A stretch of 64,000 nt of DNA, from assembly GCA_001557505.1 (NCBI GenBank), contig LSAX01000006.1:1798001-1862000 (forward strand), read 5' to 3'. The DNA is from Reticulascus tulasneorum (Eukaryota > Ascomycota > Sordariomycetes > Glomerellales > Reticulascaceae). Positions within the stretch are counted from its first letter, which is position 1, and every line of letters begins with the position of its first letter. A program made the position numbers and the translations under genes. The notes under the pieces were generated by a model. It did not search any database. It was given only the letters and a program-made list of their open reading frames with translations, and had not been told where the DNA came from. Below, piece by piece: positions 8,314 to 63,000 of the stretch.

Positions 8314-9371
8314 CTACACATCATCCATCTGGCCGGCAGGCTCGTCGTCGTCGTCGTCTCCGAAGCTTGCCACGGACGACATATCGTCATCGTCTTCGCT
8401 CTCGGCTCCAGCTTCGTCAGCGGCATCCTTGTTGGCGTATCTATGCACATATTCTGTACCCTTGTTCAGCATGCAAGCCTCCCTGGAGCCTTGGTGTCTC
8501 CAAGTACGTACCCTTTACTTTGACATCGTAGCTCTTAGGTTCTCGAATAAGAAGTGCGGCCGCCTCGCCATTTAGAGGGTCGGTCGGGTTAGGATATCGT
8601 AGCAGTTGCGGAAGGAAAACCTCGAATATGTTGATCATATCGAACATTGGCGACCATGTCTGGTTGATAACGTCCAGGCAGACAGATCCTGACCTACAGG
8701 ACACCGTGCCGTTAGCGACCAGCACCCCCAAGGGTTCTCGTACTCCCGGCGGTTTTCTGGCAACTCACAGCTCATCGATATTCGGGTGGAATATACGGTT
8801 TACGAAGCCGATACTAGGTGACTTGTACGGGTACTGATCGGGGAGCTCGACATGGATTTTCCACACACCGCCTTCGAATGGAGCTGCACGCTGTCAGAGC
8901 CGCCTCATGCATGGTATGATTGATAGCACTGACTCTCGGCTGGTCCCTTGAATCGCACGTAGAACTCCTGCCTGTATCGCAAAGGTTAGGGCGTTGGGAG
9001 ATTCGAAGGGGTAGGGTTCCTAGCTCACACTACAGGAGGTTAGTTGTCGGGACTGTTCGGAGTAGAGGACAATAAGACGAGAAGGACTTGGAATAATTCT
9101 TACTGTTGTCATTGACCAGCGTAACTTCATAGTCGCTCATGAGCCTACAGTAGTCAGTCAACCATGTTATGGGGCGCTGGTAGTTGCAGTTTCGTACATC
9201 CTAGGATCCGTTAGCGACTCGAACCACATGCAATCACAAAAGGGAAGAGCCCGTACTTCATGACCTGTAAGCCGCATAGCCCGTCAGTACATCTACATCT
9301 ACATGAACCAAAGGGGGAAGCAGTGGAGACAAGCTTACATCAGTCTCGATTCTCCTGCGTGGGCTGCTCAT
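8314..9371 (-). CDS. UBC8: Ubiquitin-conjugating enzyme E2 Ubc8 (UBE2H type), nine exons including 8-, 3- and 1-nt microexons
   Basis: Exons on the minus strand: 9371-9339, 9264-9257 (8 nt), 9200-9198 (3 nt), 9144-9104, 9029 (1 nt), 8971-8934, 8883-8769, 8693-8512 and 8453-8314. They total 561 nt and encode 186 residues, matching the 183 of human UBE2H. The protein is a UBC-fold E2 with the HPN motif at 74-76, active-site Cys85 in [13 protein letters not shown], the [17 protein letters not shown] segment and an acidic tail ([24 protein letters not shown]). In yeast, Ubc8 works with the GID/CTLH E3 ligase in degrading gluconeogenic enzymes; the same role is inferred. The start [11 protein letters not shown] is canonical. 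The 1-nt exon T joins A (end of 9104) and G (8971) to make the Met codon of NDNMQEF; the 3-nt exon supplies parts of Lys and Met in VMKMLMSD. Every intron has GT and AG ends and a plausible branch site. Confidence 0.93.
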
Positions 9372-13682: not shown

Positions 13683-15778
13683 CTAGTGGTCGTCCTCTCC
13701 ATCATCCTCAGCGTTTGAGTACTTTGATACCCGCGTCAATTGCGAGAGAAGATCGTCTAGTTCTGCCCAGTTGTCCTCGGATTCTGCAAATCTGCGGTGC
13801 TTTCGTGACAGGATGTGCTAAATCATTGTTAACATTGCCCCAGACCGCTTCCGCGGATTTGTCACTTACTTCATCAAAGTCCTTGAATTTGTCCTGGCAG
13901 TTCTCGCAATAGCCGGGTTTGAGGTCTCGCTTGCTCTTCTGCGGCGGGGCTTGCGCTTGGGACCTGGAACTTGTCCTCGCATGCTTTCCGCCTTCATTTG
14001 AGGCGCCTTCCTCAATAAGATCCAACCGTCGATTTGTGGCTCTTCCGAGACTCGCAGATCGGCTCGACGTGACATCTAAACTCATCTCCGTAAGACGGCG
14101 CGAGCTCAGGTCCTGCGAATTCGAAGCACTCCTTTGCAAGACCTTGCGTTGAAGGCCATGGACCTCCTTACTGGTACCTGCCTTGGCACCATTGATACCC
14201 GACGTCGACGAGATCATCTGCGATCGAATGGCCGAGGTGATGTTGGAGGGCTGTACTCCAGATGCAACTGGTTCTCCAGCGAAGAGACGTCCGGCACCTG
14301 CCCGGCTCGTAAAAGCATTTTGAGGGCGGAAGTCGATCTGCTTGGAAGAGAAGGTCTTGGGAGGGTTGAACATCTCCATTGGCTTCACTCCAGTGCGCAC
14401 CCTGTTGTGGCCATCCTGCATCTCGGTCAAGGTGCGTTTGCCCGTGATAACCTTGGGAGCAGGCATCTCTGGTGGTTGTATAGCAGGCCGTGTCTCGACA
14501 GGAGCTTTGGCCGCCCGCTCCTTCCCTTGTGCTTGTGGTTTACGGCTCGCCTTATCGGCGACCTCAACTTCCTCCACAAACGGGCAGCGACCATCCGTCA
14601 CCGTGCGAAACTGAGGCCATTCACCCTCGTACTTCTGGTTAGCCTTGGGGTACTCCCTGACCATGATTGGCTTTTGCTTTTCGTCAATGTCGTACACATA
14701 AATGTATGGCCCTTTGAAGTGAACCAGCTCTCGACTAACGACAGTTGGATCCCGGTCAGATGGTCCGTTGAGTCTTTCGTGTTGCAGGAGCTGCAGTAGA
14801 TTGGGCTCCTCTGTTACCTTGTTGGTCCCGGTCGTGTTGCGAACGGTTCCAGGCTTTGTCCCGTAAGACGCGATAACGTATGGGTCTGGCTCCATCAGGT
14901 ATTCTAACATTCTACGAAACTTCTCCAAATGCCAGATCTTCTTTCCCATTTCCCGAGCCTTATGCAACACATCCGTATTACGCGTTGGGTTTGTGCGCCG
15001 AACGCTGTCGTCCTGGGGCTGCGTGTGAGCTCGTCTGGTCGCACTTTCAAGCAAGAGCCGACGTCGAACATCTGTTGAGCGATCCAACAGCGAGGGATTG
15101 ATTGTCTGGGGCTGCTCGTCCGATTCGGTCTCCTCATGAAGGGAGTCGTGTAAGTCAGCTTGCCCGCTTTTCTCGGCAGGAGGGATCGGCCGAGTGGTGA
15201 CGACGTGTGTGATGTTGTTTGAGAAGAACCTCTCCTCTCGCTAATAACCAGGCAAATGTCAGTTTGGGTTGGGACAGCCGCCACGGTGACTTGGTGATAC
15301 GTACAGCTCCAAGCGAGGATGCCTGTTTAGACAGTTTGGCTCTGAGATCGTCCTGGATGCTCTCAAAGTAGAAAACCATACGAGGAAACCTTGTACGGTA
15401 CTCCTTCTGCCACTCACGGATCTTGTCCAAATTGGCCGCATCATCCTGCTGCTGCTGTGTCGGGCGTTCGCGTTCCTTTGCAACTGCTTGTCGTGTAGTC
15501 GTGCGTTGTGGGAGTTGACTCCGCGGGTTCTTCTGAGGAGACCTGAGAGGTCGTTGCGTGCCGTTCTCGAGCAATTGCTTCTTCAAGGGCGGCGGCTGGC
15601 CGTAGAGCTCTTCCCGCTGCAAGTTGGCGTGAGATCGCTTCTGCTTCGCTGCCTGTGCCAGAGCCGAAGCTCCTCGCAAGGGCGAGTTGGCGACATTGGG
15701 ATTACTAGACAGAGGGATTCGTCTAGTAGACATGGCAGAAATGCTGATGGGAGTCGGTGATAGGGATACAGCTGCCAT
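13683..15778 (-). CDS. DBF4: Dbf4/NimO-type regulatory subunit of Cdc7 kinase
   Basis: Three exons: 15778-15305, 15240-13870 and 13817-13683, giving 659 residues, about the size I recall for Aspergillus NimO. Dbf4 activates Cdc7 to phosphorylate the MCM helicase at replication origins. A BRCT-like motif N spans intron 1: EWQKEYRTRFPRMVFYFESI, then EERFFSNNITHVVTTRPIP. Motif M lies around FKGPYIYVYDIDEKQKPIMV and REYPK. The DBF-type zinc finger (motif C) spans intron 2, with Cys603 and Cys606 (GYCENCQDKF) before the junction and His616 and His622 (HILSRKHRRFA) after it. Basic, Ser-rich linkers separate the motifs. The start is placed at MAAVSLSPTPIS; an upstream in-frame ATG at 15859 and a downstream Met (MSTRRIPLSS) are alternatives. 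The last exon ends AEDDGEDDH. Confidence 0.93.
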
Positions 15779-16857: not shown

Positions 16858-18388
16858 ATGAAGCTCCCCAGGTCCGTCCCTCGCAGCTTTCGAGACTTGC
16901 ACCGGCCGGCACTTCTCCCAAAGCCGAGAGCTCAAATCCTCCATCGGAATTTTGCTTCCATATCTGCCGCGGATCTTCAGTTTGGTCAACCAGTCCATGA
17001 GACCCATCCTCACATTCTCAAGGCTGGCGAGAGTCAGTCAATCCCGCCAACACCATCAGGCTCATAACCCTTTTATCCCCTTTCCTCTCAACTAATGCGC
17101 GGATGCAGTAACTCCTGGCATCTCCGCTCAGGAGTATGCGGATCGCCGTGCCAGGCTAGCCCAGCGCTTGCCCGAAGGCGGCGTCGCCGTGCTGTCGGCT
17201 GCTGAGTTGAAATATCGGTCCGGTGCCGTGTTTTATCCTTACAGGCAGGAGACGAACTTCTTGTATCTCACTGGCTTCAACGAAAGTGACTCGTTGGCAG
17301 TCATACAAAACACCGGCAAAGAGCTCGGTGACTACTTCTTCTACCTTTTTGTGCGGCCCAAGGATCCCGTCGCCGAGCAATGGATGGGGCCGCGGAGCGG
17401 CATAGATGCCGCCACAGACATCTTCAACGCGGATCAGGCCGGCGACATCAACAAGATTGAGGCTATTCTGCCAGATATTCTCAAGGGCGCCACCAGGGTC
17501 TATACCGACGTCGAAAAGCCCAAGCACGGCCAGGCGGAGAGCAAGTTCTGGCAGCTGATGAAAGGCAACAAAGAATGGTTCCCATCCATTCAGTTGCCGC
17601 TCTACTCCCTTATGAACACCCTGCGAGCGACCAAGACCCCAGCAGAGATCGCAAACATGCGCAGAGCGGGCCAGATTTCCGGCCGAGCCATCACAGATGC
17701 CATGCGACGACAGTGGACCGGCGAGAAGGACTTGCAGGCTTTTCTGGATTACCGCTTCACCGCGGATGGGTGTGACGGTCCAGCCTACGTTCCCGTCATC
17801 GCGGGCGGCCAGAATGCGCTCTGCATCCACTACGTCTTGAACAACAAGATTCTTAAAGACGGGGATATGGTTCTTGTCGACGCTGGCGGTGAATATGGGA
17901 CTTACATCACTGACATCTCGCGAACATGGCCTGTGTCCGGGAAGTTCACGCCCGCGCAGAAAGACCTCTACAACGCTATCCTGAAGGTACAGCGCTCGAG
18001 CGTCTCCCTCTGCCGCCAGAACGCAAACCTTTCCCTCGACGAAATTCACGACGTCACCACCAACGGGCTCTTAGAACAGCTCAAGGACCTGGGGTTCGAC
18101 ATCTCGCACCGGACAATAGACACCTTGTTCCCCCACCATGTAGGCCATTACATCGGCCTTGACGTGCACGACGTCCCCGGGTACGGCAGAAAGGTACCCC
18201 TGCAGGCAGGCCACTGCGTCACAATCGAGCCAGGGGTGTATGTGCCTGATGATGACCGATGGCCCAAGCATTTTAGAGGCATGGGTATTCGCATCGAGGA
18301 CAGTATCTGCGTAGACGAGGATTCGCCGCTGATACTTACCACGGAGGCCGTGAAAGAGGTAGTCGACATTGAGGCTCTCCGGGGTTGA
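16858..18388 (+). CDS. ICP55: Mitochondrial intermediate-cleaving peptidase Icp55 (M24B aminopeptidase P family)
   Basis: Two exons, 16858-17032 and 17109-18388 (76-bp intron, phase 1), give 484 residues. Icp55 removes one residue from the new N-terminus of imported proteins after presequence cleavage, stabilising them. The first 40 residues are basic and hydroxylated (MKLPRSVPRSFRDLHRP...ILHRNFAS), a mitochondrial targeting sequence. The junction yields HPHILKAGEITPGISAQEYA, the conserved start of the aminopeptidase P N-terminal domain, followed by FYPYRQETNFLYLTGFNE. The pita-bread catalytic domain has the five metal ligands: Asp316 and Asp327 (VLVDAGGEYGTYITDISRTW), His405 (HHVGHYIGLDVHD), Glu432 (TIEPGVY) and Glu455 (RIEDSI). 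These bind two Mn2+ or similar ions (family knowledge). A cytosolic Xaa-Pro aminopeptidase is less likely, given the presequence. Confidence 0.93.
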
Positions 18389-25524: not shown

Positions 25525-27163
25525 ATGGGGCTCCTAAATGTAGACGTAGGGCCTTCCCAAGGTCTTGCTGTAGGGTTAGCCGGCATTGCAACTCTCTTCG
25601 TCGTATTGAGTCGTCTCAGCGCGAGGAAAGCACATCCTAATGAGCCACCATTACTTTTACCATGGGTTCCATTCATCGGCCACTTACTTGGTATGGCTCT
25701 GTACGGAGGCAAATATGTCAAAAGACTTGGGTAACGGCAGAGAGTTGACCGAATAAAACGGCTCATGCTAACCTCTGAATAGGTTGTCACATAAGGGATT
25801 GCCAATCTTTACCTTACCCGTCCCGATGTCCAGGATATACATAGTTACAGATCCATCTTTGGCAGCTGCTGTTCAGAGAGCATCCAAAGCACTCTCATTC
25901 ACTCCACTGGTTCCCGATATTACGGAGCGCATCCTTGGTCTGGACAAGCGAACAATCAACATCGTCTGCCAGAATCTCGATCCTCAACCCGGAGAGCCTC
26001 GAGGGTTTCTTGCGGATATCCATGATATGCTCTACTCGTATCTAGGCCCTGGGCAACCATTGAACGAACTCAGTCGCGATGCTGCGCAGGAACTTTGCGA
26101 GCAGCTGAATCACTACATGGAATCTCTGCAACGACAGAACCCTCCCTCGGAAACGGTAGATTTGCTTCTCTGGGTACAGCATTTTGTCACGGTGGGAACC
26201 GCTATGTTTCTTTATGGCCCCAGCAATCCAATCGCTGTCCATCCCGAACTCGAAGAAGCATTCTGGGACTTTGACCATGGCCTAGGTGGATTGCTGATGG
26301 GGATATATCCGTCCTTGACAGCAGCCAAAGCGTATCGGGGAAGAGAGGCGCTGGCAAAGGCATTGTCAGAGTATTTAGAAGCCGGGCATCATAAACAGGC
26401 TTCCCGAATCGTACAAAACCGGGTCAGCATTGCGGACCAGTACGATTGGACGAAAGACATGACTGCTCGTTCTGAATTGTCATTCCTTTTTGCTGGAATT
26501 GTGAACACAGCAACGACTGTCTTTTGGGTTGTGTTACAAATCTTTGCCAGCAAAGAACTCCTGGAAGCTGTACGGGCTGAGCTCGCGGCAGCTGTTGCAG
26601 AGAGCGAGACGAACGTCGGTCCAGGTCATATCAGCATTAACGCTATCAAAGAGAGCTGTCCAACATTGGTCGCAGTCTTCAGAGAGTGCTTGAGAGTAGG
26701 GTCGGAGAACTTCTCAACTCGCCTTGTAAGAGACGATATGATGCTAGCAGACAAGTATTTCTTGAAGAAGGACTCGGTGGTTCAGATCGCGGGTGGGGTT
26801 ATCCACGCTGACAAGGGAATATGGGGCGAAGATGTCGACGACTTCAACCCCCAGAGGTTTCTTAAAATGCAGGAGGGAAAGCAAAATTCCGTACATCCAG
26901 CTGCTTTCCGAGCTTTCGGCGGCGGCAAGACGTTGTGCCCCGGTAGACACTTTGCGGCGAACGAAATCCTGACTTTTGCGGCAATGATCGTAATGGGCTT
27001 CGAGCTCTCAGCCTCTGATGGTGGACAGATCCGTGTCCCGAAGAAGCATGACGGCGTACTGCCAGTACACATTCTGGAGCCCCATGAAAAGGACAGCGTC
27101 AAGGTCAAGGTCAAGGTCAAGAACGCGATCGAAAGCACGAAGGCTTGGAAGATAGTGTTGTAA
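25525..27163 (+). CDS. Cytochrome P450 monooxygenase
   Basis: Two exons, 25525-25730 and 25783-27163 (52-bp intron, phase 2), give 528 residues. An N-terminal membrane anchor (GLAVGLAGIATLFVVLSRLS) is followed by the Pro-rich hinge PPLLLPWVPFIGHLLG. The I-helix oxygen-binding motif is AGIVNT (about 306-311), the K-helix ExxR is ECLR (370-373), and the haem loop is FGGGKTLCPGRHFA with the thiolate ligand Cys454. The FGGGxxxCPGRxFA loop and overall look recall fungal P450s annotated near CYP7/CYP8-like (7-alpha-hydroxylase or prostacyclin-synthase-like) families; the substrate cannot be told. The C-terminus carries an in-frame (GTCAAG)4 tandem repeat encoding VKVKVKVK at 27098-27121. There are no other biosynthetic enzymes beside it, so it is not obviously part of a secondary-metabolite cluster. 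Confidence 0.92.
27098..27121 (+). repeat. Hexanucleotide tandem repeat (GTCAAG)4 inside the P450 gene
   Basis: Four perfect copies of GTCAAG encode alternating Val-Lys near the P450 C-terminus, after the conserved fold. The array is likely to vary in copy number, in frame, without harming the enzyme. Confidence 0.7.
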
Positions 27164-31225: not shown

Positions 31226-33765
31226 TTACCTGAGTGACAGAGTCAATTCGTCCGAATACTTCAGAAACTCCCTCCTCTGCTCAACCAGCGTGAGTCCATG
31301 CTTCCTCACTAGTCTTGTCCACTTGTGCTCGGCTTTCCTGACCCGATCTTCGTCCTCCTTGGTCAATGAAGTCTCATCCTCGTGCTTGGGCACCGAGTCC
31401 ACGTATCTTACTGCATTGTCATCCTGGGGAGTCCAGATTCCTCGGTGACCTGACGGGATCCCTTGTTTCTGGCGAATGCTCTGCATAACGACGCCGGCTA
31501 GGCCTGGGGCCATTGTTGTTGCGAGAAGAGCAGTGACAACATCTTTCCGGGGATAGCCCATGGACTCCCACCGTTCAATCTCCGCATCGATTTCGGCAGC
31601 ATTGTCATCTTCAGAAGATTGGTTCCGATCATCTGGCTGCAGATCCGGCTCCTTGGTCTGTCTGCTGTCTCGTACGGGATCTACTGAGCGAGCATCTAGA
31701 GGCTTTCCGCTTTTTGGAGAAAGAGGGTTACGTCTGGTGAGCGTGGCGGAGCCGAAGTTGACAGCGGGAAGCCCGGCCAACCCAGAACCACCCTGAACAG
31801 AGGTGACTTTTGGTGTATTGGCACTCAGTCGACACGGTATTGGGCTGGCTTCTTCTTCGGCATGTAGTTGCTGAGAAGGAGTGATGTCCCACTGCTGAGA
31901 GTCTTGTTCAAGCGGATCTTCCGGCTCGAACCCGAAATCTTGTGTCTCAGGTTCGAGGCGCTTATCACTGATTACCGCGGTGCCTTGGCGTTCCCTGGAT
32001 TGTGCGTTGGAGTCAGGAGATATTTGGGGTCTTCGGGCACTGAGTGAGGGGCTGCCGTTAAGAACATGGCTGGGCCTCGAGATCCCCAGTTTCTCATCCG
32101 GCGTTGAAGGGATTTCACCATCGCGACTCAGGCGTCGTCGCTTACTGCCCCGGCTCGGTGGATAAACTGAGTCGGTATCCTGGTGAAAGGAATCGATCGG
32201 TCTTTTTCGCGACCCTGCGGCAACTGGTAGAGATGATAGAAGTGCAAATCTAGTTTCGTCGTGTTGACGTATCTCAACATCCGCTTCCGCTTCCGAATCC
32301 CGCACCTCTTTTTCAACTTCTACACGCGTGAACCCGTCCATAAGAGATACAAATAAGGAAAGATTGATATCGTAGCATCGCTGTAACTTTCCAGGCACGT
32401 TCGGCGATTGGCTCAGATGAAATCCAAGGCTCTGCGAGACTAGCTTCCAGTCTATTTCTTCCGACATCAATGGCCGATCCGCCCCTGTCGCCAAAGCTTG
32501 ATTCTTTACGGCATCGAACAGATGGAATAAGTCGACCACTCGATGATCCACCGTGGGAGACATATCCACATGTACTCCGCTTGCCTCAACGTAGCTTGTA
32601 AAATCACTGTAAAACTGGTCTCTCACGGCTTTGTCTTCAGGAAGCTCGTCCTCGGTAGGATTAGGGTTACGCTCAATTCGACCCCGGCTTGAATTGGTCG
32701 GTTGCTCCTCCTTAGGAACTAGCCGGGTCTGCCGTGGGGTATCGCGGTCTGTCGAGAGTTTATGTGATCTGGTCGGCGATCTCGAATCCTCTGGTTGCTG
32801 GTCAGATTCGGTTCTTGCAGCCGTAGTTTTAGCGTTTTGCGGAAAAGTCCTTCTCCAACGCGATTTCCACGAATCCCAAGTATGATGGGGGTGCTGCACA
32901 CAGTTAGCCTACACGGATTTTTATTTATTTATCTACTACGCCAGTTCTTACCATTTCTGCAATCATCCTGAACACCTTAACTGTCATTCCAAACCCTTCC
33001 CTCTCTGCGTCGAGCACGAATTGAGATAAGATTGCATCGTCTTCGTTACTAAATTCGGTTCTTGAGCGACTTTGTCTTTCGGGAGGGCCAGGGCTTCTAG
33101 CTGGAGAAGCACGAGGATTGTAAGGTTGTGTTTCATGCCCTGCTATAGCCGAAAGTTCGGGTTCTGAAAGCTGAGAAAGCCTCTTTACCCACCGGTCCCT
33201 CCACGACATCCATGTGTGGCGAGGGTTCTGATACAATCAGCCTCTAAGCCTTTCAAAAGGTTACAACCTCGACTTACCTGTCCTTCCAACTCTTTATATA
33301 TCTCATTGCCACTCCGAGAGTCCCGTGACACAACCCACTTCACCAAGATCACATCATCGTCAAACGTGAATGGAGTCCGACTTATCTTCTTTGGTGTTGA
33401 GGATTCAGTATTCCGTGGCTCATGGGTTGCCCGCCGAATACGGTAAGGGTCTTGGTCCTGCAGTTCACCGGATTTGACGGAATCCTCAATGAACTTCCAC
33501 GAGATGGAATTTGGTGGAGCATCCTTCCTGACGTGATCTGCTATGAGAATGTCTGCATTCTTTTCCAAGGGCACAATCTTCCCACCATTTTGCTACAAGC
33601 CATCAGCAAGAATAGGACCGGGCGATGTGATGGGAAATATACCTGGATCTTGCTGATGATGTCCCGTCTTATGGGTATGCGCAGGGCAACCCAGAACTTT
33701 ATATCTTGAAACAAAGTCCCTGCTTCTGCGCTCTCAACTCCATCATACACGATAGTTGGCGCCAT
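31226..33765 (-). CDS. RAP1: Telomere protein Rap1 (BRCT, two Myb-like domains, RCT)
   Basis: Four exons: 33765-33643, 33592-33278, 33227-32952 and 32893-31226, giving 793 residues. The N-terminal BRCT region (about 1-90) reads TLFQDIKFWVALRIPIRRDI, then GGKIVPLEKNADILIADHV. Myb-like domain 1 (about 114-165) spans intron 2: FTFDDDVILVKWVVSR and NPRHTWMSWRDRWVKRL. Myb-like domain 2 (about 203-256) spans intron 3: FSNEDDAILSQFVLDA and HPHHTWDSWKSRWRR. Residues about 326-426 look ARID-like (DQFYSDFTSYVEASGV, VVDLFHLFDAVKNQ, DWKLVSQSLGFHLS). The C-terminal 120 residues match the Rap1 C-terminal protein-interaction domain (IERWESMGYPRKDVVTALLA, GIWTPQDDNAVRYVDSV). Rap1 guards telomeres and silences nearby chromatin. 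Introns are 50-58 bp and all phase 0. Confidence 0.88.
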
Positions 33766-42081: not shown

Positions 42082-45000
42082 ATGAGTAACACTCGTGATC
42101 CTGCGCGACTGCGACAAGGTCTAAACCCTCTGTTGACGACTTCTCTTGGTGGCTTCCACAATCAACTTAATACACCGCTGTCTGCTGTGTCCATGAGCTC
42201 GACACACACGCACTTGCACTCGGCCCAAACGCCTGCGAGTGCCATACAGCCATACAATCCGCAAGAATGGATCGGATCTCCAGTTGCTGGCCCAGAGCGC
42301 ACCCACCAATTTCCGGATTCCCAAGGTAAACTAGTCTTTTACCCTATTTTTGACATTATGCGGCATCTGCTGATTGTTTCGCGAAGCTTCACCACCACCC
42401 CCGCCTCCGTATAGCCCACCAAGAAGTCAAAGGCCCATGAGCATGTCTTTCGAACCTGCACCGGCCAACACATCGGCCGTGCGAATGCCTCCGTCGAACC
42501 TGCACCGACCCTCGCCAGAGCCGGTGGCCACGACATCGTTCCCACCTCCGCCAAATGCCAGTGGAAGAGGCGGCTCACGGGATAGGCGGTTTGGTCTTCC
42601 ATCTCTCAGACGAAACAAGGAGCACCACGACCAATCAAGTCCTCCCGAACCCCATCCACCAATATCAATCGCAAGATCATCTCCGGGGCCTTTGCAGATA
42701 CATATTCCGCAGCAACCTCCAGAGAGAACGCCATCTGCCTCTTCAATAAGTGGCGCTCCGGGTGCCCGCAGAGCAGTCTCGACAAGTGCTGTGGAGACAC
42801 CATTATCCGCGCGGTCTCGGTCGACGTCTCAGACGAGATGGGGCCCAGGGATGCCTCTTCCTCCACCGCCGCCAGGCCCACCACCGGCCCCGTCGCGGTC
42901 GCAAAGCGCCAGCAGGACAAGCGAACCTGCTATTTCACCACCTACCAGACGCCCTCCGCCGAATGGCGTATCTGCTCTCGGTCCAGTACCACCAACCCCT
43001 GCGGATTGGATAGATCAGGATAATCAGCAGAATCAGCCCGGCCGAGGAAGGTCACCCGGCCTTACTATAGACACAGTCAGTGCTGCCAGCTCTGCTCAAT
43101 CAGGCGACTCGAACACGTCTGCCGGGCTCAATTCTGGCGGGCTGAATCGTACCGGAGCTGTTCGACACGATAAGACAATTGTACAAAGGCGGACAGAGAG
43201 CCGAACCAGGCAGCCTGGACCTCGTGGTTCTATTGATGGGATTGATCAACTCGGGCAGTTGTCCGATATTGTGGTCCCGAGCTCGACCACGCTGTCTCGT
43301 AGATTAACGATCACAAAGTCAACTCCTCGAAGTGGGGGCCGAACGATATATGATACTCCCCGAACTGGTGAGCAGTCTGCGGATTCGAACCATGATTCTC
43401 GAGGTTCCACACCAAGACCACTAGGTTCTGCTCAACACCCGCACCCCGAGACAGCAACCCCACCGTTCTCACCACGTCCGATAAAAGCGGTGCCGATGGT
43501 GGAAGGCTCTCCAAGCGTTGTGCCGAAAGCCTTGCCGACTCCTCCGCCTCAGACTCGGTCAGCGTCTAGTTCACAAACTAGGCTGAGTGCCACGACACCA
43601 GCAGATACGATTTCCACGTCAGCCACAACAGGCCCGAAGCAAATCGTTGTCACCCAAACGGCCGAACAATTTTGCCGAGGAGCCGTCGAAAGATTTCAGG
43701 CATTTGCGCTGAAGGAGTCACTTGCCCCGTCCGACGCCGATCGCGTCCGTCTCTTTGCAGACTTCATAGTCAGCGAGTCTAGGGTGAGACGAGAAAGATA
43801 TTCCTCGGCTATCGGGGCTATGGGTTCGGAAATCTTCGATTTGACGAGGGACCTCTTCCGCCCTATGGCAGCATCAAGGCGGGAGTCTGCAACGTCCGAA
43901 GGGGAATGGACACCACAGTCATCTGCACCTACAGCGTCTCACCGTGGCTCTATGAACTCCATCTATCGAGATGGTACTGGACAATCGAGTTCAGCTCCAC
44001 CATCAGCAAACCTTCCAATGTCTCCAAATGGCGGCACACCAAACAACGTAAACTGGACGTCAAATTACATGCCCTCTCTGTCTCCTATCCTGAGTCTCAG
44101 TGTCAGCGATAACCATGATGGTAGTTCTAGAGGGCGACCGTCGAGCAGATGGTGGGAGGCTGAATCCATGGGTGGTCCAGACCAACGCCTCGAGAGGTCC
44201 AAAAGGGAGTCCAAATACATGGGGGTGCCGAAGGAGGCGCGAGAAGCTCTTCAATGGACGGATAACCCACACAAACAAGAAGTACAAGCTGGTTCTAGCG
44301 ACCAAGGTTCTTCCAATGGCTATCCTGCCGAGAAAACTGGCTGGCACGGCCAAGACCCGACACTAACGCCGCAGCCGCTGCGACACTCCAGCTATTCTGC
44401 CGTGTCGTCCTCATCCCCAACGACCCCGAACCCAGCCCACGTTGATGTATCCCGTTTAGTCACTCTTCCACCTCCATACCCCCGGCATCATCCGGCCGTG
44501 AACAACAGCCACCCAGAGCTTACTTCCACACGAACCGCAGTTCGGCAAATAACCGACTTGAGTGAAGTGGAGGCGACAAAGGAAAGGTTCAAGCTCAGTA
44601 GCCAGAAGAAGCGGGAGGAAGCTACTAAGGCCGCCTCTGAGCGCCGCCAGGCTTTGCGGGGCAACCTGCAGCAGGAGATCAATTCCGGTAACATGACATT
44701 CGCGGAGGCATCGGCTATCGAGGCAGACTCTTACGAAAGCGAGAAAGAAAAGACCAAGGAAAGGGAGAAGAACGACTTCGAGCTATTTCAAAGTCAAGTT
44801 GTGATGCCCCTGAATGAGCTCCTGACCGCCCGTATAGCAAGAGCGACGGCGCTTTTTGACGAGCTGGCCGGCCAACTTTTCGGTGACGTTGGGAATGCTG
44901 CAGATATGCCACAAGAAGAAGGCGACGACAAACCAGAACTGCTCGAGAAGTTGACGCTACTTAAGTGGATCTTCGAGGCACGAGAGATGCTGCACAGGGC

Positions 45001-45739
45001 CATCTACGATGTTCTCTCAGACCGGAATGATCGTTACCGAGAGGTCGTTCTCACCCCTTACCGATTGGCCCGCAATGAGGAAAAGATTCAATCAGCCGAG
45101 GCTTTCTTCGCTGAAGATGCTGCAAAGCGTCAACTGGCGTTTGCAAATGAGGTTCTCCATCGAGCCCGCGAGTTCCGGGCCGTAGCTGAGCAGAACGTGA
45201 TGCGAGGTGTTGAGGTACAGTTGTCAGCGTTCTGGGACATTGCACCGCCTCTTCATCGACTTCTCGATAAGATCCCTCCGACCCTTGAGGAATTCAACAT
45301 CCAGATCCCAGCGGTGGAGTACGAGGAAAACCCCTCGTATTATGAGCATCCTTTTCAGTACCTATTCAGCCTTCTCCTACACGCAGAAAAGAGCACCTAC
45401 CAGTTCATCGAATCCCAGACGAACCTTCTTTGTCTGCTGCACGAAGTGAAGGAGGCTGTTACCCATGCCAAGGTCAAGGTGGTGCAGAGCGAGATGGATG
45501 ATGCCGATGGGCAGCCCTACTGCGAGGAGGAACGCGAGCAGCGGGCGGACAAGATGCGCAAGGAGGAAGAGCAGAGGTTGACGGATGATCTGAAGGAGAA
45601 GGTGCGTGTGGTTCAGGATCAGTGGCACAGTGCCCTGGGCGAGGGTATCAAGAACGTCAAGGAGCGAGTTGGCGAGTGGCTGCTGCAGACCGGCGGCTGG
45701 GACGAATCGCTGGAAGAGGGCGGCGTTGGCAGTGTCTAA
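42082..45739 (+). CDS. Large Pro/Ser-rich protein with C-terminal coiled-coil region, function unknown
   Basis: Two exons, 42082-42325 and 42387-45739 (61-bp intron, phase 1), give 1198 residues. I do not recognise the family. Residues 1-490 are Pro/Ser/Arg-rich and probably disordered (ASPPPPPPYSPPRSQRP, MPLPPPPPGPPPAPSRSQSA), with many potential SH3- or WW-binding and kinase sites. A first compact region starts near 497 (KQIVVTQTAEQFCRGAVERF, DRVRLFADFIVSESRVRRER, IGAMGSEIFDLTRDLFRP). A charged helical segment begins near 807 (SEVEATKERFKLSSQKKREE, ASERRQALRGNLQQEINSGN), followed by a helical domain to the end (PLNELLTARIARATALFDEL, LKWIFEAREMLHRAIYDVLS, EEREQRADKMRKEEEQRLTD). The length, intact frame and compact C-terminus indicate a real gene, probably conserved in filamentous ascomycetes. 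A scaffold or trafficking role is only a guess. Confidence 0.85.
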
Positions 45740-46604: not shown

Positions 46605-47091
46605 CTCGTGTTTGGCGCTCTAAAGATGGGCAGAGGTGGAGGGTTTATCAGCACCAAATACTGATGAGATTGAACTTTTTTTCCGTCGCGAGCATGGAGA
46701 AGCAAGGCTCCTAACGCGGCATGCGCCTGCTCCTGGGGGTTTATCTCAATGCCCAATCAGCACCCTTGGGTGGCAAGCACTAACTGACTACGTAGTAATT
46801 TGGTACTAAATGGAAAATTGTTAAGGCCCCGCAGTGGCCTGGGAGCTGACGTGGGGCAGGTCATGTTGCTCTGAAAAGCTTCAATGGCGGGGGGATCCTG
46901 ATGGCTAATTCATTACTTCTTCCAGCTTTTATATATCCGCTTCGAAATTGAGAGGAACTTATATTAAAGAACTTATATTACACTGGTGCTCGCTTGCAAT
47001 CCAAGGCATTTCTGATCTGGGCCCCATATACCGTCGGAGACATAAGGCTCTATACTCATACCCCATTCAGCGCGAGTTGACGCAAGCGTCT
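46605..47091. promoter_or_regulatory. Bidirectional promoter region FMC1 / MET22
   Basis: A 487-bp spacer between divergent genes. The MET22 frame remains open upstream to an ATG at 46948, but residues before 47092 look like untranslated leader. A repeated AACTTATATTA occurs at about 46956-46981. Confidence 0.5.
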
Positions 47092-48342
47092 ATGCCCGCT
47101 AAGCAGCCAGTCCAGCAGAAAAGACGCTTCACCTCCCCCTTGTCTCTCCTCTTCTCGTCAGTCCTGGTAGTAACGCTGGCAATCTTGTCTCTACGAGCCT
47201 TCCCTCGGCTCTCTCTTCTCGCCGCCCACCTCCACCCCATTCCCCCAAGTTTCCGGCTCTATTCAGCTGGTCCGACCATGTCGTACGCAAAGGAGCTCGA
47301 AGTGGCCCAGCTGGCTGTCCAACGTGCAACAATCCTGACGAAAAGGGTCTTCCATGAGAAGGCCAAGGGAACGGTTGACAAGAACGACAAGTCGCCGGTC
47401 ACCATTGGCGATTTCGGAGCGCAGGCTTTGATCATCAGTGCGTTGAAGCACAATTTCCCCGAGGATGAGATTGTTGCAGAAGAGGAGGCAAGCAAGCTCC
47501 GCGAGGATGCTGGGCTGCGGGATCAGATTTGGGATCTGGTCAAGACCACGAAGTTAGAGGATGAGAAGGCGGAGAAGATATTGGGTGGTCCAATTACGGA
47601 TGCCCAGAGCATGCTGGATCTGATTGATCTGGGGAACAGCAAGGGCGGAGCCAAGGGCCGCATCTGGGCCATTGATCCCATTGATGGCACCAAGGGCTTC
47701 CTGCGGGGTGGCCAGTACGCCGTCTGCCTCGCTCTTATGATTGACGGCGACGTCAAGGTCGGCGTGCTGGGCTGCCCGAACCTGCCCATCGACGACGCAG
47801 CCAAATTGACAGCGGATATTGGCTCGAATGCCACAGACGAGGGCCGCGGGGTCATCTTCTCCGCCGTTCTTAGCCAAGGCGCAACAAGCCACCCGCTCGG
47901 CATAGGATCCCTTGCTGGCGGAACAGCCATCTCCATGCGCCCTGTTAAGGAGATGTCCGCAGCGACGTTCTGCGAGAGCGTCGAGGCCGGACATTCCGCA
48001 CACGACGAACAGGCGCAAATTGCGCAGAAGCTGGGCATCACGAAGCCAAGTGTGCGCATGGATTCGCAGAGCAAGTATGGATCTATTGCGAGGGGCGCCG
48101 GTGACATCTACCTGCGCTTGCCGGTGAGCAAGACATATCAGGAGAAGATTTGGGACCATGCTGCTGGAGACCTCATTGTGAGGGAGGCGGGAGGACAAGT
48201 CACGGACATCCATGGCAAGCGGCTGGATTTCACCGTCGGGAGAACTTTGGCGAATAACAAGGGCGTTGTTGCAGCACCAGCAGCTGTCCACGGCGAGGTC
48301 CTGAAGGTTGTGCAGGAAGTACTGAACCAAAAGGCAACATAG
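47092..48342 (+). CDS. MET22: 3'(2'),5'-bisphosphate nucleotidase Met22/Hal2 with N-terminal extension
   Basis: Intronless. The enzyme hydrolyses adenosine 3',5'-bisphosphate (PAP) to AMP during sulfate assimilation and is a Li+/Na+-sensitive member of the inositol monophosphatase-like metal phosphatase fold. The conserved enzyme begins at Met 47278 (MSYAKELEVAQLAVQRATIL) and would be 354 residues. Motifs are FHEKAKGTVDKNDKSPVTIG, the metal-binding EEEAS, WAIDPIDGTKGFLRGGQYAV and WDHAAGDLIVREAGG. The frame stays open upstream. An ATG at 47092 adds 62 residues with a basic start, a hydrophobic helix (PLSLLFSSVLVVTLAILSLR) and a basic, Ser-rich end. I chose 47092 because chance opening of this length is unlikely and the extension looks like a mitochondrial or membrane signal. 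Leaky scanning could give both forms (inference). Confidence 0.9.
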   Translation: MPAKQPVQQKRRFTSPLSLLFSSVLVVTLAILSLRAFPRLSLLAAHLHPIPPSFRLYSAGPTMSYAKELEVAQLAVQRATILTKRVFHEKAKGTVDKNDKSPVTIGDFGAQALIISALKHNFPEDEIVAEEEASKLREDAGLRDQIWDLVKTTKLEDEKAEKILGGPITDAQSMLDLIDLGNSKGGAKGRIWAIDPIDGTKGFLRGGQYAVCLALMIDGDVKVGVLGCPNLPIDDAAKLTADIGSNATDEGRGVIFSAVLSQGATSHPLGIGSLAGGTAISMRPVKEMSAATFCESVEAGHSAHDEQAQIAQKLGITKPSVRMDSQSKYGSIARGAGDIYLRLPVSKTYQEKIWDHAAGDLIVREAGGQVTDIHGKRLDFTVGRTLANNKGVVAAPAAVHGEVLKVVQEVLNQKAT

Positions 48343-52212: not shown

Positions 52213-54571
52213 CTAGTGGGCCTTCACTACTCCCGCGGCATCGGCTTGTGCTGCAATCCTCTTCTTGTACTGTTGTACATCTCCGGGGAACTTCTCCACG
52301 GTTCCACCATCACAAACCCAGAGCGACTTGCAGACGGTCTGTAACATCGTCACATCGTGGGATACCATGAGAACGCCACCCTGGAACTCATTTAGAGCCT
52401 CCGCAAGAGCGTCCATTGCCTCAATATCGAGATGATTGGAAGGTTCGTCGAGAACCAGAATTTGCGGGTTCGTCAATGCCAAGCAGGCAAAGGCCACGCG
52501 AGACTTTTGTCCACCGGATAGAAACTCCATCTTCTGTAGACCAGTAGTACCTGTTATGCCGAAAGCTCCAAGTTGCCGCCTGTATTCTTCATCCGTTCTA
52601 CCAGGATAGTTTTTGGCCATGAAGCCGACAGCGCTGGCGTTGAGGTCCAATGCGTCAACGTGGTGTTGGGCGAAGAAGCCAACACGTAGACGAGGGTTCT
52701 GTGAGATCAAGCCAGTCGTCGGGGTCAACTTGCCGATCAAAAGCTTGAGCACCGTGGTTTTACCCGCGCCGTTGGGTCCGACAATCCCTATTCGGGAATC
52801 AAGCTGCACATCAAGGTCGACGTTTCTCAGGAGAATATTATCTTCGGTATAGCCGAACGACACCCCAGACATTTGGATGATGGGTGGCGAAAGCTTCTCG
52901 ACGTCAGGGAACTTGAAGTGGACACTGTATTCGGTTTCGGGTGCTTCAAGGACTGGCATCTTCTCCAGTTTCTTAATTCGCGACTGAGCCTCGGAGGACT
53001 TGGCGGCATTGTACCGAAACTTATCGATGAATGCCTGGAGATGGGCTCGCTGCGCCATCTGATTCTCGTATTCTCTCTTCGCTGTCTTCTTCCTTTCTTC
53101 CCTGGTTGCGTAGAATGAATCGAAATTTGCGCTCCTGTAGTAGTCTAGTCTTTCGGAGTGTTGATGGATGATGTCTGTCGCTATTTCATTGAGGAACGCT
53201 CGGTCGTGACTGACTACAAGAACGGTGCTGGGATATCCTTGGAGGTAGTTGGAGAGGAAAGTGATGGAGGGAACGTCCAACATGTTGGAAGGTTCGTCGA
53301 GCAACAGTAAATCCGGCTCACAGAACAGGGCTCTGGCCAACGCCAAACGCATTCTCCAACCACCGGAGAAGGTCTTGGTCGCAAACTGTTGCCGTTCCGT
53401 CGAGAAACCGAGGCCAGCCAATATACTTGCAGCTCGGGATTCGGCTTTGTCGGATTCCATCTCTGCCAGCTTGGCTTGGACATCTCCAAGCGTTTGATCC
53501 AAAACCTCTCTCTCTTTGTCGATCTTCGCAGCATCGGCGGATGTATCCGCCAAAGAGACCCGTTGACTTTCCAGGTCGCCGAGCTTTCTGGTGATTTCCT
53601 ATCTACTGTCAGAACGTACGCTGAAAGGTGAAAGCGAAGAAGACTTCGTACAGTTTGTTCTTTGAGCAAAACTTTACGCCAAACATCGGCATCAAGAACT
53701 GCTTGCAAGGCTGGAGTGTCATCGCCAGTGATCTGTAGGTTTGGTTAGCATGGCGCAAGATGCCGGAGGAAACAAATCGCCTTACCTCCTGTTCCACATG
53801 AAGAATTGAAATGTGAGGAGGGATCGGAAGGTCACGTCTTGCCAAGGCTCGGAGAAGCGTAGATTTACCAACACCGTTGTGTCCAACCAAACCATATCGG
53901 TGGCCGAAGGCCAGAGTGAAGTTGGTGTCGGTGAGAATTCGGGTTCCACTGATGGATACGTCGACATTGTCAATTTTGATGTCCTTGGATTTCCCTTGTC
54001 CCCCACCGCCTAGTTGAAGTGGGTTGACAGCCATGTAGAACTCTTCATAGGACTCGGTTGACTCGGGCTGATTCAGCAATCTCGAAGCCTCATACTCGAC
54101 AGTCTTGAACGTCTTCTTCTGCTGTTTCGCAGCAATCTTTCTCTCTGCCTTCTCCAGCTTCTTCCTGTCTACTTTGGATTCGACCTTCCTTGCATTTGCA
54201 GATTCCAGGTCTACCCCGACAGTAGACACTGCAAGAGTTGAGGACATGTTTCTTTGAGAACCGACTTGAATAGTCTGATCTAGTCTCCTGACAAGAGACG
54301 GGCCTTTTCGTTCTCCGCCATTGGCGGCGCTGTACTTATCTACCCATTTCTCAACAAGCTGCCGGATCTTTTGTTGGAGGGCAGGATCAGAGTTTCCCGA
54401 GGCTGAGAGCAGAAGGTCAGTGACGATAGCCGCCGCCTCGGTGAGAGGGGATGAGTCCGTCGGATCATCCTCGTCCGACCATGTGGTCGAAGCATGGGTC
54501 AAATATCCAACCGAGTACTCCGATATCACCGGGTCGATATTTGGAAGGACGGTTCTCAGCTCAGACTCCAT
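52213..54571 (-). CDS. GCN20: ABC-F ATPase Gcn20, translation regulator
   Basis: Three exons: 54571-53786, 53732-53652 and 53598-52213, giving 750 residues, against about 752 for yeast Gcn20. Gcn20 partners with Gcn1 on ribosomes to activate the eIF2alpha kinase Gcn2 under amino-acid starvation. The N-terminal 200 residues are the Gcn1-binding region with a charged helix (KVESKVDRKKLEKAERKIAA). The first ABC domain has Walker A GHNGVGKST, signature FSGGWRMRLALARAL and Walker B DLLLLDEPSNMLD. An ABC-F linker rich in Arg and Lys follows (TREERKKTAKREYENQMAQR). The second ABC domain has GPNGAGKTT, LSGGQKSRVAFA and QILVLDEPSNHLD. There are no transmembrane segments. The two 53-bp introns are phase 0. 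The 81-nt middle exon encodes ITGDDTPALQAVLDADVWRK and following residues. Confidence 0.97.
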
Positions 54572-60097: not shown

Positions 60098-63000
60098 ATG
60101 CAGACCGTTCCAAGCGTAAGTTGCTCCTCGGCGTCGCGCCTCACCCCCTCCAAAGAGATCGTCGAAACAGTCCAGACCCTCTCATGAAACTTTCTACACA
60201 CTCCCCCTCCTCCGCTTGATGGGCGACTGCACACTGCCCAATGCTCTTAATCTCTCGAAACGCTCTCGACAATAGTCCCAGGAAACTCAATCGCTGACTT
60301 ATCACTTGATTAGCTCGTTGGGACTGGTTCTGCCGTTGCTGCAGCTGCCATCGGACTGGTCTTCGCCCAACCTGTCGACTCAATTCCCACCCGACCTCCA
60401 TCGAGCAAGAGGAAAGCAACTTCAGACAATGAGATCCATACGAACCTTCGATTGAGCAGTGCACCTGCTACTTCAAGGCCGGGAACAAGCTCTGCCTCCC
60501 AGATGCCAGCTTTTGAAGAGACTCCTGCCCAATATAATACCCTTCCCCATCAGTTCTCCTTGTCATCAACAACAACAAATACCACGCGTCACCAACGACC
60601 ACTTAGCACACAATTCACCCCGCAGAAACTGAACAGCAGAAGACAGTCATTCATACGCCAAGGAGACTTTGGTGCCCCAACCATTGCGGAGGATCAGCGG
60701 GATTCTGTTTCGTCCAACGGATCTTGGATGAGACGGCTGTCTATCCGACCTTTGTCACAACACGGAAGTATTCGGTCTAGTATTGGGCCTGATTCACCAT
60801 CCATCACTTTCTCACACGGCTCGTCTGCCCCTATATTGTCTCCCTCAGGTTCCACCCCTCCCCCGTTACCTCCGAACAAGCTGGTCAAGCGTGCTCCGTC
60901 AGCCCATCAGAATGGAACTGTGATGCGACGGCGTTCTAAATCGCACTTGCCAACTCTTCGACGACCTGCAACTAGCCACCAACGTTCTGCCACACTGCAG
61001 CAGTTCCAACAAACCGTCGATCTCACTGCACCAGTTCCTGGGCCCAAGTACTCCCTGGATCAACACACCCGGCCAAGGGATGCTTTGGCACAGCCCGAGA
61101 TCGAGCCGCCTAGCCAAGCGAAAGATACAACCAGGTGGACTTCATTTTTCTATTCCCGAACAACGATTGCCAATGTCCGGGGAGCGTCCGATCGATTACT
61201 GGATCGAAGTCCCAACAGTCGATCGTCTCCGGCAACAAAACGAGTCTGCATCCCAGTCGAAGACAGCAGGGACGTCTACTTGATAAGGGGCGGATTGATT
61301 GATAGTGGTGCTTTTTATACTGAAAATTCTATCAAGGAAGGAAGTCCGGTTGTGCCTAGTCGGGACACAATCAACACAGAAAATATAACCCCAACTCCAG
61401 AGGATACACCCACGAAACGGGCAAGGCGTTCGATATCCATGCATTTTTCATCACCAACTAATTGGATCTCGAAAACTGGTAGCATTCGACGGCCAAAGCG
61501 CGGAGCGGAACCAAAAGGTGGGAATAAGCGGCACGTATCTGCACCTGTAACAACGTCGCAGGGCGCCATTCAAGACGACCTCACTAGTCCTGCAGAAGGG
61601 GACTACACCTTGCAAAACCGGCGGCAATCCACCGACTTCGATCCTACATCAATTCAGCCACGGGCACGTAAACGCAATTCCTCTTCTCCGCTCCCTCCGA
61701 TCTCTCGTCTCTCGAGTTTTCACATGGACCTTCCGAGAACTGGGGGGTCTACCACCGCAACCCAACAGATTCGGCCCAACCAGCCATCTGGCAGTTCACA
61801 AGGATCTGCGGCTGAAGGTGCATACAGAATTCCCCAAAACGAGCGCAGCTCGACCATGAATAGTTCCGATTTGGAAGTGAGAGATTTCAATTCTGGAGAT
61901 GATGATGACACAGACTTCAAGAGTGATACAATGTTCGACTCCATTCGAACTGTAGCATCGGGCCGTAATCGCACAGTCGAAACTCCACTGGAATCAATGT
62001 TCGACGAATCGCCTCCGAGCACTGCTGGCAATAACAGCAAGACAAAGCGGCTTTCTATCCAGGAGATTCTCGGTCGGTCATGGGACGGAGACAATAGAAT
62101 TATGGAGGAGGATGAAAGCATATCGACGCCCGTGCGAGACACTCACGATCCCGACGCTCGAGCGAACACGGATAGAAACGCATCAAGGTTCAGCTTCGAT
62201 CAGTCACTACATGAGTTGTCTCTGGCAAACAAGGAGTTCGGTCGATTGTCAATGGACGAGGACTTTGAGGAGGATTGGGCTCGAGATGATGACATGCATC
62301 TGAGCAATCACCTCTCGCCGCCGTCAAGCTCACTGAACTCGCGAAACGTCAGCCCCAATCTACGGATGGCACTCGCTAGTATCAGCGGTAATGGTAGCCC
62401 AGAGGCTTCACACAGCGACACGAACAGTGAGAGACCTCGCAGCAATTTATTCGATTGGAGCGAGCCATCAGTTCATGATAAGAACGAGCTGGAGGGTCAC
62501 TCACCTCGGCCTCGAACGGTGCATGGGAAGCAAGAATTGGATGTCAGAGGTGGCCGCTCGGCGAGTCGAAAAGGACCAAGTGTGGCGCACGTGCGTAGTC
62601 AGAGTGTACCAGTGGTGCATGACCCGACGGATAACACGAAATCGGCTACTCCCAAATATGGAACTTGGGGCCTGGGGACGAAGACGGTGAAGGAAGACTG
62701 GGACGATGACTTCGAATTTGGCGGTAGCGAGATCGAGGGCAAGGATGCTGAGAAGGACTTTGCGATGCTTGTCCCAGCTTCCATTCAAGCCTCCCAGCCA
62801 AGTGTCAAGGCTCATTCCGGCCAGATTCGAGAATTTTCTCTCCTCGTCAACGATCTGAAACGTCTCTGCCGGCATGGACGAGATATGGATATGTTGACCG
62901 GTCCTCAAGCAGGGCTTTGGAAAGAGGCCGAAGGCATAATTGCGCTCGCTTCTCCCGATGAAGATTCAATGGAGGGAATGGACGTGGAATCTTCATCGGT

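What the first reader, a model, noticed from the sequence alone, without database searches (positions are those of the whole stretch)
9029..9029. Single-nucleotide exon in the UBC8 homologue
Seen: exon 4 ends ...AAC A at 9104 and is followed by a perfect donor GTAAGA. The next exon with the conserved [10 protein letters not shown] begins G CAG at 8971. One base is missing for the Met codon of the family motif NDNMQEF. Between them lies CTAAC...CTGTAG, then T, then GTGAGC...CTAAC...ATACAG. Treating the lone T at 9029 as an exon restores ATG and the frame, and the whole CDS becomes 561 nt (187 codons). Alternatives fail: a single long intron shifts the frame, and using the nearby GAACAG acceptor meets an in-frame TAG. 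Known: a 1-nt exon has been described in an Arabidopsis gene; exons this short are very rare. How the spliceosome recognises a 1-nt exon is an open question. Possible answers are sequential splicing of the two introns or a shared recognition unit.
Basis: partly seen in the sequence, partly recalled or inferred. Interest (0 to 1): 0.9.

Follow-up and report, generated by a model that had tools for sequence, protein, structure and literature searches.

The report
One-letter exon in fungal UBC8 gene
In a fungal gene for a ubiquitin-conjugating enzyme, one single DNA letter lying between two predicted introns is likely an exon by itself, and protein records of related fungi suggest that it is probably old, widely shared and usually missed by gene annotation.

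Summary
The minus-strand gene 9371-8314 is the only UBC8-type gene found in its genome. Nine exons of 33, 8, 3, 41, 1, 38, 115, 182 and 140 nt give a 561-nt CDS. The lone T (9029) has CTAAC..TAG before it and GTGAGC..CTAAC..CAG after it. Of 45 enumerated in-frame, stop-free joins of exon 4 to exon 6, only this one gives NDNMQEF at family length. Motifs alone are near chance genome-wide; the case rests on frame and conservation. In 120 named relatives' records the length at this junction is right in 24 of 112 anchored, against 114/116, 112/115 and 115/118 at the next three junctions. In 61 unnamed, mostly short-contig (probably cDNA-derived) proteins it is right in 61. Many wrong annotations decode to the same out-of-phase edges (A|GTNNGT, AG|G), and nine read as A+T+GTNNG. 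So the 1-nt exon is probably shared across Pezizomycotina and systematically misannotated. One-nucleotide exons are known (plant APC11 and VPS55, conserved in land plants; Fusarium CYP621A), so this is a new member of a known kind, the first sign of deep conservation in fungi that I found. Sequential removal of the introns is likely; the order is unresolved. No RNA reads or relatives' DNA were available.

The parts
9339..9371 (-). Exon 1, 33 nt, [11 protein letters not shown]
9265..9338 (-). Intron 1, 74 nt, phase 0, GTAAGC..CTGAC..CAG
9257..9264 (-). Exon 2, 8 nt (GTCATGAA)
9201..9256 (-). Intron 2, 56 nt, phase 2, GTACGG..CTAAC..TAG
9198..9200 (-). Exon 3, 3-nt exon (GAT); gives VMKML; skipping it stays in frame (VMKL)
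9145..9197 (-). Intron 3, 53 nt, phase 2, GTACGA..CTGAC..TAG
9104..9144 (-). Exon 4, 41 nt, ends ..GACAACA (first base of the Met29 codon)
9030..9103 (-). Intron 4, 74 nt, phase 1, GTAAGA..CTAAC (9 nt follow it)..TAG
9029..9029 (-). Exon 5, the single-nucleotide exon T (second base of the Met29 codon)
8972..9028 (-). Intron 5, 57 nt, phase 2, GTGAGC..CTAAC (13 nt follow it)..CAG
8934..8971 (-). Exon 6, 38 nt, starts with G of Met29, then [12 protein letters not shown]
8884..8933 (-). Intron 6, 50 nt, phase 1
8769..8883 (-). Exon 7, 115 nt
8694..8768 (-). Intron 7, 75 nt, phase 2
8512..8693 (-). Exon 8, 182 nt, carries the only Cys (Cys85, CLDVINQTW)
8454..8511 (-). Intron 8, 58 nt, phase 1
8314..8453 (-). 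Exon 9, 140 nt with stop, acidic tail

Best explanation
The T at 9029 is most likely a constitutive one-nucleotide exon of the UBC8/UBE2H gene, predicted to be joined between exons 4 and 6 when two short canonical introns are removed, probably one after the other. Shown here: both intron candidates carry full splice signals, and the T completes the ATG of the conserved NDNMQEF and keeps the frame. Inferred: each intron is recognised by intron definition, because one base is too little for the 3' splice-site factors of intron 4 and U1 on intron 5 to bind together. The introns would therefore be spliced in succession, with the T first carried at the edge of a still-unspliced intron. Skipping the T would shift the frame and stop translation after 68 codons, before Cys85 (computed). 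Also inferred from proteins: the same out-of-phase pair of introns around one base is shared across Pezizomycotina, and most annotations examined get it wrong.
For: (1) Gene model complete at 561 nt with GT-AG ends at all eight introns. CTAAC lies near the end of introns 4 and 5, with 9 and 13 nt after it. (2) The only family-consistent join among 45. (3) The only UBC8-type gene found in the genome, with the other exons in frame. (4) In the 64-kb window, tandem intron motifs 0-12 nt apart occur only in this gene: spacers T, GAT, GTCATGAA and two overlapping 9-nt hits. (5) Relatives: named annotations keep the length at this junction in 24 of 112 anchored of 120, versus 114/116, 112/115 and 115/118 at the next three junctions. 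Unnamed proteins keep it in 61 of 61, all reading M(Q/S)EF (60 by pattern plus P0079). (6) The residue after NDN is one that an ANN codon can encode in 116 of 116 left-anchored named records, as expected if exon 4 always ends in A. (7) 16 records read S[KEMTQ]QEF, as a +4 donor shift in A|GTNNGT would give; 29 end in RQEF, as AG|G would give; 12 read KF[YF], as GCAAG|AG would give; 9 of 10 with M plus an insert read M-[YFS]-[VA], i.e. A+T+GTNNG. (8) Precedents with RNA evidence: APC11 and VPS55 in plants, CYP621A in Fusarium.
Against: No RNA reads and no relatives' DNA could be examined. The motif is near chance genome-wide: 2 strict hits in 42.8 Mb, reversed control 2, and 29 loose tandem hits over 13 spacers (3 with a 1-nt spacer) in 2 Mb of shuffled sequence. 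A looser single-intron motif was not enriched over one shuffle (274 v. 310). Five named records read RQEF at the right length, and one M-insert (P0037, MHP) does not decode; 25 of 120 fall in no class and 4 could not be anchored. The classes were written after seeing the strings. The unnamed set has length differences of its own at one control junction (E7/E8, 52 of 60). Splice order could not be decided: duplex energy favours intron 5 first (-5.4 v. -4.5 kcal/mol), consensus matches favour intron 4 first (6 v. 4 of 9).
Confidence: 0.88

Rival explanations
1. One long intron (9103-8972) plus a sequencing or assembly error of one base at an exon edge; the codon would then be AxG from a longer exon.
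For: One lost base at either edge would also restore the frame. Five named relatives are annotated RQEF at the right length, which one in-phase intron would give.
Against: The 132-nt stretch holds a second complete acceptor/donor/branch set around exactly one T, seen in 0 of 20,000 shuffles by the strict test. Relatives' annotations break at the same junction (24 of 112 right), and nine decode as A+T+GTNNG. A private error would not do that.
Confidence: 0.04
2. The join uses a 19-nt exon (9052-9034) between GTAAGA..GAACAG and the weak donor GTAGTG, adding six residues to the protein.
For: In frame and stop-free.
Against: It puts intron 4's CTAAC into coding sequence, uses donor GTAGTG, and puts IPTTNLL in place of Met29 in a stretch that all 61 unnamed proteins keep at family length.
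Confidence: 0.02
3. A complex intervening sequence spliced as a nested unit (stwintron-like), with one intron recognised only after the other is gone; the T is kept either way.
For: Geometry of two introns one base apart; stwintrons are described in ascomycetes (abstract starts and passages).
Against: Neither intron interrupts the GT donor, branch or AG of the other; both have complete signals of their own, so the defining split element is missing. As a kinetic scheme it merges with the best explanation.
Confidence: 0.05
4. The gene is a decaying or regulated unproductive copy, whose normal product lacks the T.
For: Skipping exon 5 gives a 68-codon frame-shifted product, a possible off-switch.
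Against: The only UBC8-type gene found; the other exons are in frame and highly conserved.
Confidence: 0.01

Closest known systems
Arabidopsis APC11 single-nucleotide exon (Guo and Liu 2015, PMC4674806; abstract and discussion read)
   Same: A constitutive 1-nt exon between two introns in a ubiquitin-pathway gene; sequential removal proposed
   Different: Plant and a different gene; shown with APC11-GFP constructs in vivo. Here fungal and not yet shown on RNA
1-nt microexons of APC11 and VPS55 in land plants (PMC8831610; passages only)
   Same: 1-nt exons conserved over a large clade and missing from reference annotations, which then predict wrong proteins
   Different: Plants, with RNA-seq and RT-PCR; VPS55 has isoforms with and without it. 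Here fungi, other gene, evidence from protein records
Fusarium CYP621A one-nucleotide exon (Nelson and Syed 2026, PMC12940212; abstract, introduction, results and discussion read)
   Same: A fungal 1-nt exon as middle base of a codon in a conserved motif, phase 1 then phase 2, with SRA reads in two species
   Different: Base is G, which fits the splice consensus; reported in Fusarium species for a P450 said to be rarely expressed. Here the base is T, in an enzyme with yeast and human homologues, with signs of it in six classes, and with 3- and 8-nt exons beside it
Stwintrons (spliceosomal twin introns) of ascomycetes (PMC5639578, PMC7138796, PMC6616335; abstract starts and passages)
   Same: Two adjacent short introns removed in succession, missed by automatic annotation
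   Different: There one intron splits a splice element of the other; here both have complete signals and one coding base lies between
Mitochondrial one-nucleotide exons (placozoan cox1, PMC5436844; Ophiostoma rnl, PMC12308204; passages only)
   Same: One exon base between two introns
   Different: Group I or group II introns in mitochondria, not spliceosomal
Trichoderma Xlr2 20-nt microexon (PMC11121469; passages)
   Same: Fungal microexon conserved in a genus and missed by annotation
   Different: 20 nt and differentially included

Membership tests
Single-nucleotide exons (APC11, VPS55, CYP621A) | Exactly one base between an AG acceptor and a GT donor of two complete introns | tested here: met
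   TAG-T-GTGAGC with CTAAC in both introns
Single-nucleotide exons (APC11, VPS55, CYP621A) | The base is needed for frame and conserved protein motif | tested here: met
   Only one of 45 joins gives NDNMQEF; M(Q/S)EF in all 61 unnamed proteins
Single-nucleotide exons (APC11, VPS55, CYP621A) | Mature RNA contains the base | not testable with these tools
   No reads of this fungus; unnamed, mostly short-contig proteins of relatives are only indirect
Single-nucleotide exons (APC11, VPS55, CYP621A) | Conserved in orthologues at DNA level | not testable with these tools
   No fungal DNA collection was open; protein records imply it
Stwintron | One intron interrupts a donor, branch or acceptor element of the other | tested here: not met
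   Both introns have intact GT, CTAAC and AG
UBC8/UBE2H E2 enzymes | UBC fold family | tested here: met
   PF00179, E 6.2e-39
UBC8/UBE2H E2 enzymes | Best solved relatives are UBE2H-type, with the catalytic Cys in CLDVINQTW | tested here: met
   8pmq (E2-24 kDa), 8pjn and 2z5d (E2 H) rank first; Cys85 aligned in 2z5d. That 8pmq is Ubc8 is recalled
UBC8/UBE2H E2 enzymes | Partner of the GID/CTLH ligase | not tested
   Recalled function; no test here

The most novel reading that the evidence does not exclude
A one-nucleotide T exon, with a 3-nt exon just upstream, has sat inside the ATG of Met29 of UBC8 since the common ancestor of Pezizomycotina, was kept because imprecise loss of either intron destroys a needed frame, and is misannotated in most sequenced filamentous ascomycetes.
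Probability: 0.72. Interest if true: 0.8.

Novelty: new member of a known kind. Interest (0 to 1): 0.72.

Why it matters
My searches found three nuclear genes with a 1-nt exon in print: APC11 and VPS55 in land plants, CYP621A in Fusarium. A conserved one in a single-copy fungal gene would bring the question to organisms with short introns, simple genetics and much public RNA-seq: how does the spliceosome join an exon that it cannot recognise as one, in which order do the introns go, and how often does it fail? It would also give a ready test for gene predictors, which get the length wrong here in about four of five named records that could be anchored (88 of 112).

Tried and rejected
Genome-wide motif search as proof: rejected, since the strict motif has two hits and its reversed control two. 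The other hit (C32:3112841) showed no convincing coding context by eye. Loose tandem motif in 200 kb more of the genome: one hit, with a 7-nt spacer.

U1 pairing to settle splice order: inconclusive (the U1 letters are recalled).

DNA of relatives: viral contigs gave no relative.

Stwintron reading: rejected as membership because no splice element is split. An AT-initial outer intron after intron 4 removal: considered by hand only, and rejected because the frame fails.

My first junction script used wrong expected lengths at two junctions. It was corrected and extended to both searches.

In print: searches 'single-nucleotide exon', 'stwintron', 'microexon' with 'fungi' and '1-nt', 'micro-exon' with 'ascomycete' and 'intron', 'one-nucleotide exon', '1-nt exon', 'UBC8' with 'exon', 'annotation' and 'fungal', '1-bp exon', 'microexons' with 'Aspergillus' and 'gene prediction' listed nothing whose title or abstract start reports a 1-nt exon in UBC8; listed papers were mostly not opened. 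The library holds open-licence papers only; the paper on a single-nucleotide intron shift (Fekete 2017) is not held.

Change after re-checking: passages of PMC8831610 show that 1-nt exons conserved across land plants are already in print.

Full report
What is there. The minus-strand gene at 9371-8314 encodes a 186-aa UBC8/UBE2H-type ubiquitin-conjugating enzyme: PF00179 at 6.2e-39, best solved relatives a yeast E2-24 kDa (8pmq; Ubc8 by recall) and UBE2H (8pjn, 2z5d). Nine exons give exactly 561 nt, and all eight introns have GT-AG ends. Exons 2, 3 and 5 are 8, 3 and 1 nt long. It is the only UBC8-type gene found in the 42.8-Mb genome: three of 17 protein matches are its own exons, the other 14 are partial and at most 52% identical.

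Whose genome. It is unnamed. A 1,121-aa open frame 33 kb away is 70-73% identical to its best Colletotrichum matches, so the fungus is probably a relative of Glomerellales (Sordariomycetes; lineage of Colletotrichum). In C. jinshuiense the UBC8 record (P0027) and that protein (P0190) are 12 locus numbers apart, on contigs of the same length. P0027 reads NDNMQEF.

The T at 9029. The upstream exon ends in phase 1 (..AAC A), the downstream one begins in phase 2 (G CAG..). Exactly one base is missing, and of the four AxG codons only ATG gives the family's Met. Of 11 one-intron and 34 two-intron open joins, only GTAAGA(9103)/T/GTGAGC(9028) gives NDNMQEF. Both introns have CTAAC near the end (9 and 13 nt follow it); introns 2 and 7 have CTAAC too, introns 1, 3 and 6 CTGAC, and intron 8 no such motif. 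In the whole window, tandem intron motifs with spacers of 0-12 nt occur only in this gene, with spacers T, GAT, GTCATGAA and two overlapping 9-nt hits.

What motifs cannot show. In 20,000 shuffles of the segment the strict arrangement never appeared and a loose one appeared 4 times. Over the genome the strict motif has two hits and its reversed control two, and loose tandem hits appear in shuffled DNA at about one per megabase per spacer (29 over 13 spacers in 2 Mb). The motif supports a place already marked by frame and homology; it does not prove an exon.

Relatives. Two protein searches (best 120 of 5,951 and of 5,545) gave 189 distinct proteins. By hand from the tables I sorted 61 as unnamed (longest contig 0.9-3.3 kb for 57, 7.3 kb for one, not given for three), 120 as named genome records, 6 as Lipomycetaceae (all clean) and 2 plant-named (left out). 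The 120 are ascomycetes by name, mostly Pezizomycotina; they include Saitoella, which is outside it, and some records labelled MAG. At the 1-nt junction the length is right in 24 of 112 anchored named records (19 MQEF, 5 RQEF) and in 61 of 61 unnamed ones. The next three junctions are right in 114/116, 112/115 and 115/118 named records, the first junction in 103/113, and the 3-nt-exon junction in only 52/118, most often by skipping (38 VMKL). In the unnamed set the same control junctions give 61/61, 52/60 and 58/59. Breakage in named records thus concentrates on the two microexons.

How the errors read. Wrong annotations are informative because they seem to translate pieces of intron. The residue after NDN is ANN-codable in 116 of 116, so exon 4 seems to end in A everywhere. 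S[KEMTQ]QEF (16) is what a four-base donor shift in A|GTNNGT gives: K, E, M, T and Q would correspond to GTAAGT, GTGAGT, GTATGT, GTACGT and GTCAGT. Inserts ending RQEF (29) fit AG|G read through. KF[YF] (12) fits an acceptor inside GCAAG|AG. Nine of ten M-plus-insert records (Beauveria, Fusarium sp., Septoria, Coniosporium, Paecilomyces, Aspergillus tamarii, Hortaea, Botryosphaeria, Aureobasidium) read M-[YFS]-[VA], i.e. A + T + GTNNG, the T exon followed by an unrecognised donor; the tenth (P0037) does not. I defined these classes after seeing the strings; 25 records fit none and 4 could not be anchored. Looked-up examples with a broken junction span Sordario-, Leotio-, Eurotio-, Dothideo-, Geoglosso- and Pezizomycetes; the T itself is readable in looked-up species of three of these (Beauveria, A. 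tamarii, Hortaea).

Mechanism. Inference: each intron is short and complete and is recognised across itself; the single base cannot hold both sets of factors, so the introns go one after the other. Guo and Liu propose much the same for APC11 and note that in potato invertase the second intron around a 9-nt exon goes first (discussion read). Here order is open: duplex energy and consensus matches disagree. Losing the T would give a 68-codon product without Cys85, whereas losing GAT removes one residue in frame. The T is thus predicted to be all-or-none for the enzyme.

Known and new. Single-nucleotide nuclear exons are in print for APC11 and VPS55, both described as conserved in land plants and missing from reference annotations (PMC8831610, passages), and for Fusarium CYP621A, whose report calls itself the first fungal one. 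Mitochondrial cases between self-splicing introns exist too. My searches listed none for UBC8 (see Tried and rejected). This is therefore a new member of a known kind. What would be new is a deeply conserved one in fungi: a single-copy gene, a non-consensus base (T), a 3-nt exon beside it, and indirect signs of it across a subphylum.

Limits. No reads, no fungal DNA from relatives, and no proof that the unnamed proteins come from cDNA. The five RQEF records may be real losses or one-base slides of an intron, and would be worth reading first.

Noticed in passing
window 9200-9198 (-): A 3-nt exon GAT in the same gene; named annotations of relatives often skip it (38 VMKL among 118 anchored), while all 50 anchored unnamed proteins keep the length.
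   Followed up: partly
window 9264-9257 (-): An 8-nt exon GTCATGAA, so three exons under 10 nt lie within the first 29 codons.
   Followed up: partly
L003:1501-1573 (G000:C32:3112841-3112913): The only other strict CTAAC..YAG-N-GTRAG..CTAAC hit in the genome, also with T as the single base; no clear coding context by eye.
   Followed up: partly
window 42374-45739 (+): 1,121-aa open frame; no Pfam domain is recorded for any of its 120 listed relatives; 70-73% identical to its best Colletotrichum matches.
   Followed up: no
window 13708-15087 (-), 31226-32899 (-), 60452-63649 (+): Open frames with Dbf4/Dfp1, Rap1 C-terminal plus ARID, and septation-protein Etd1 domains.
   Followed up: no
window 17168-18388 (+), 25784-27163 (+), 46948-48342 (+), 52213-53553 (-): Aminopeptidase P, cytochrome P450, inositol-phosphatase and ABC-ATPase open frames; ARAGORN found no tRNA in the window.
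   Followed up: no
P0041, P0052, P0127, P0139, P0155: Five named relatives read RQEF instead of MQEF at the right length: possible intron loss or one-base intron slide, or another annotation error.
   Followed up: no
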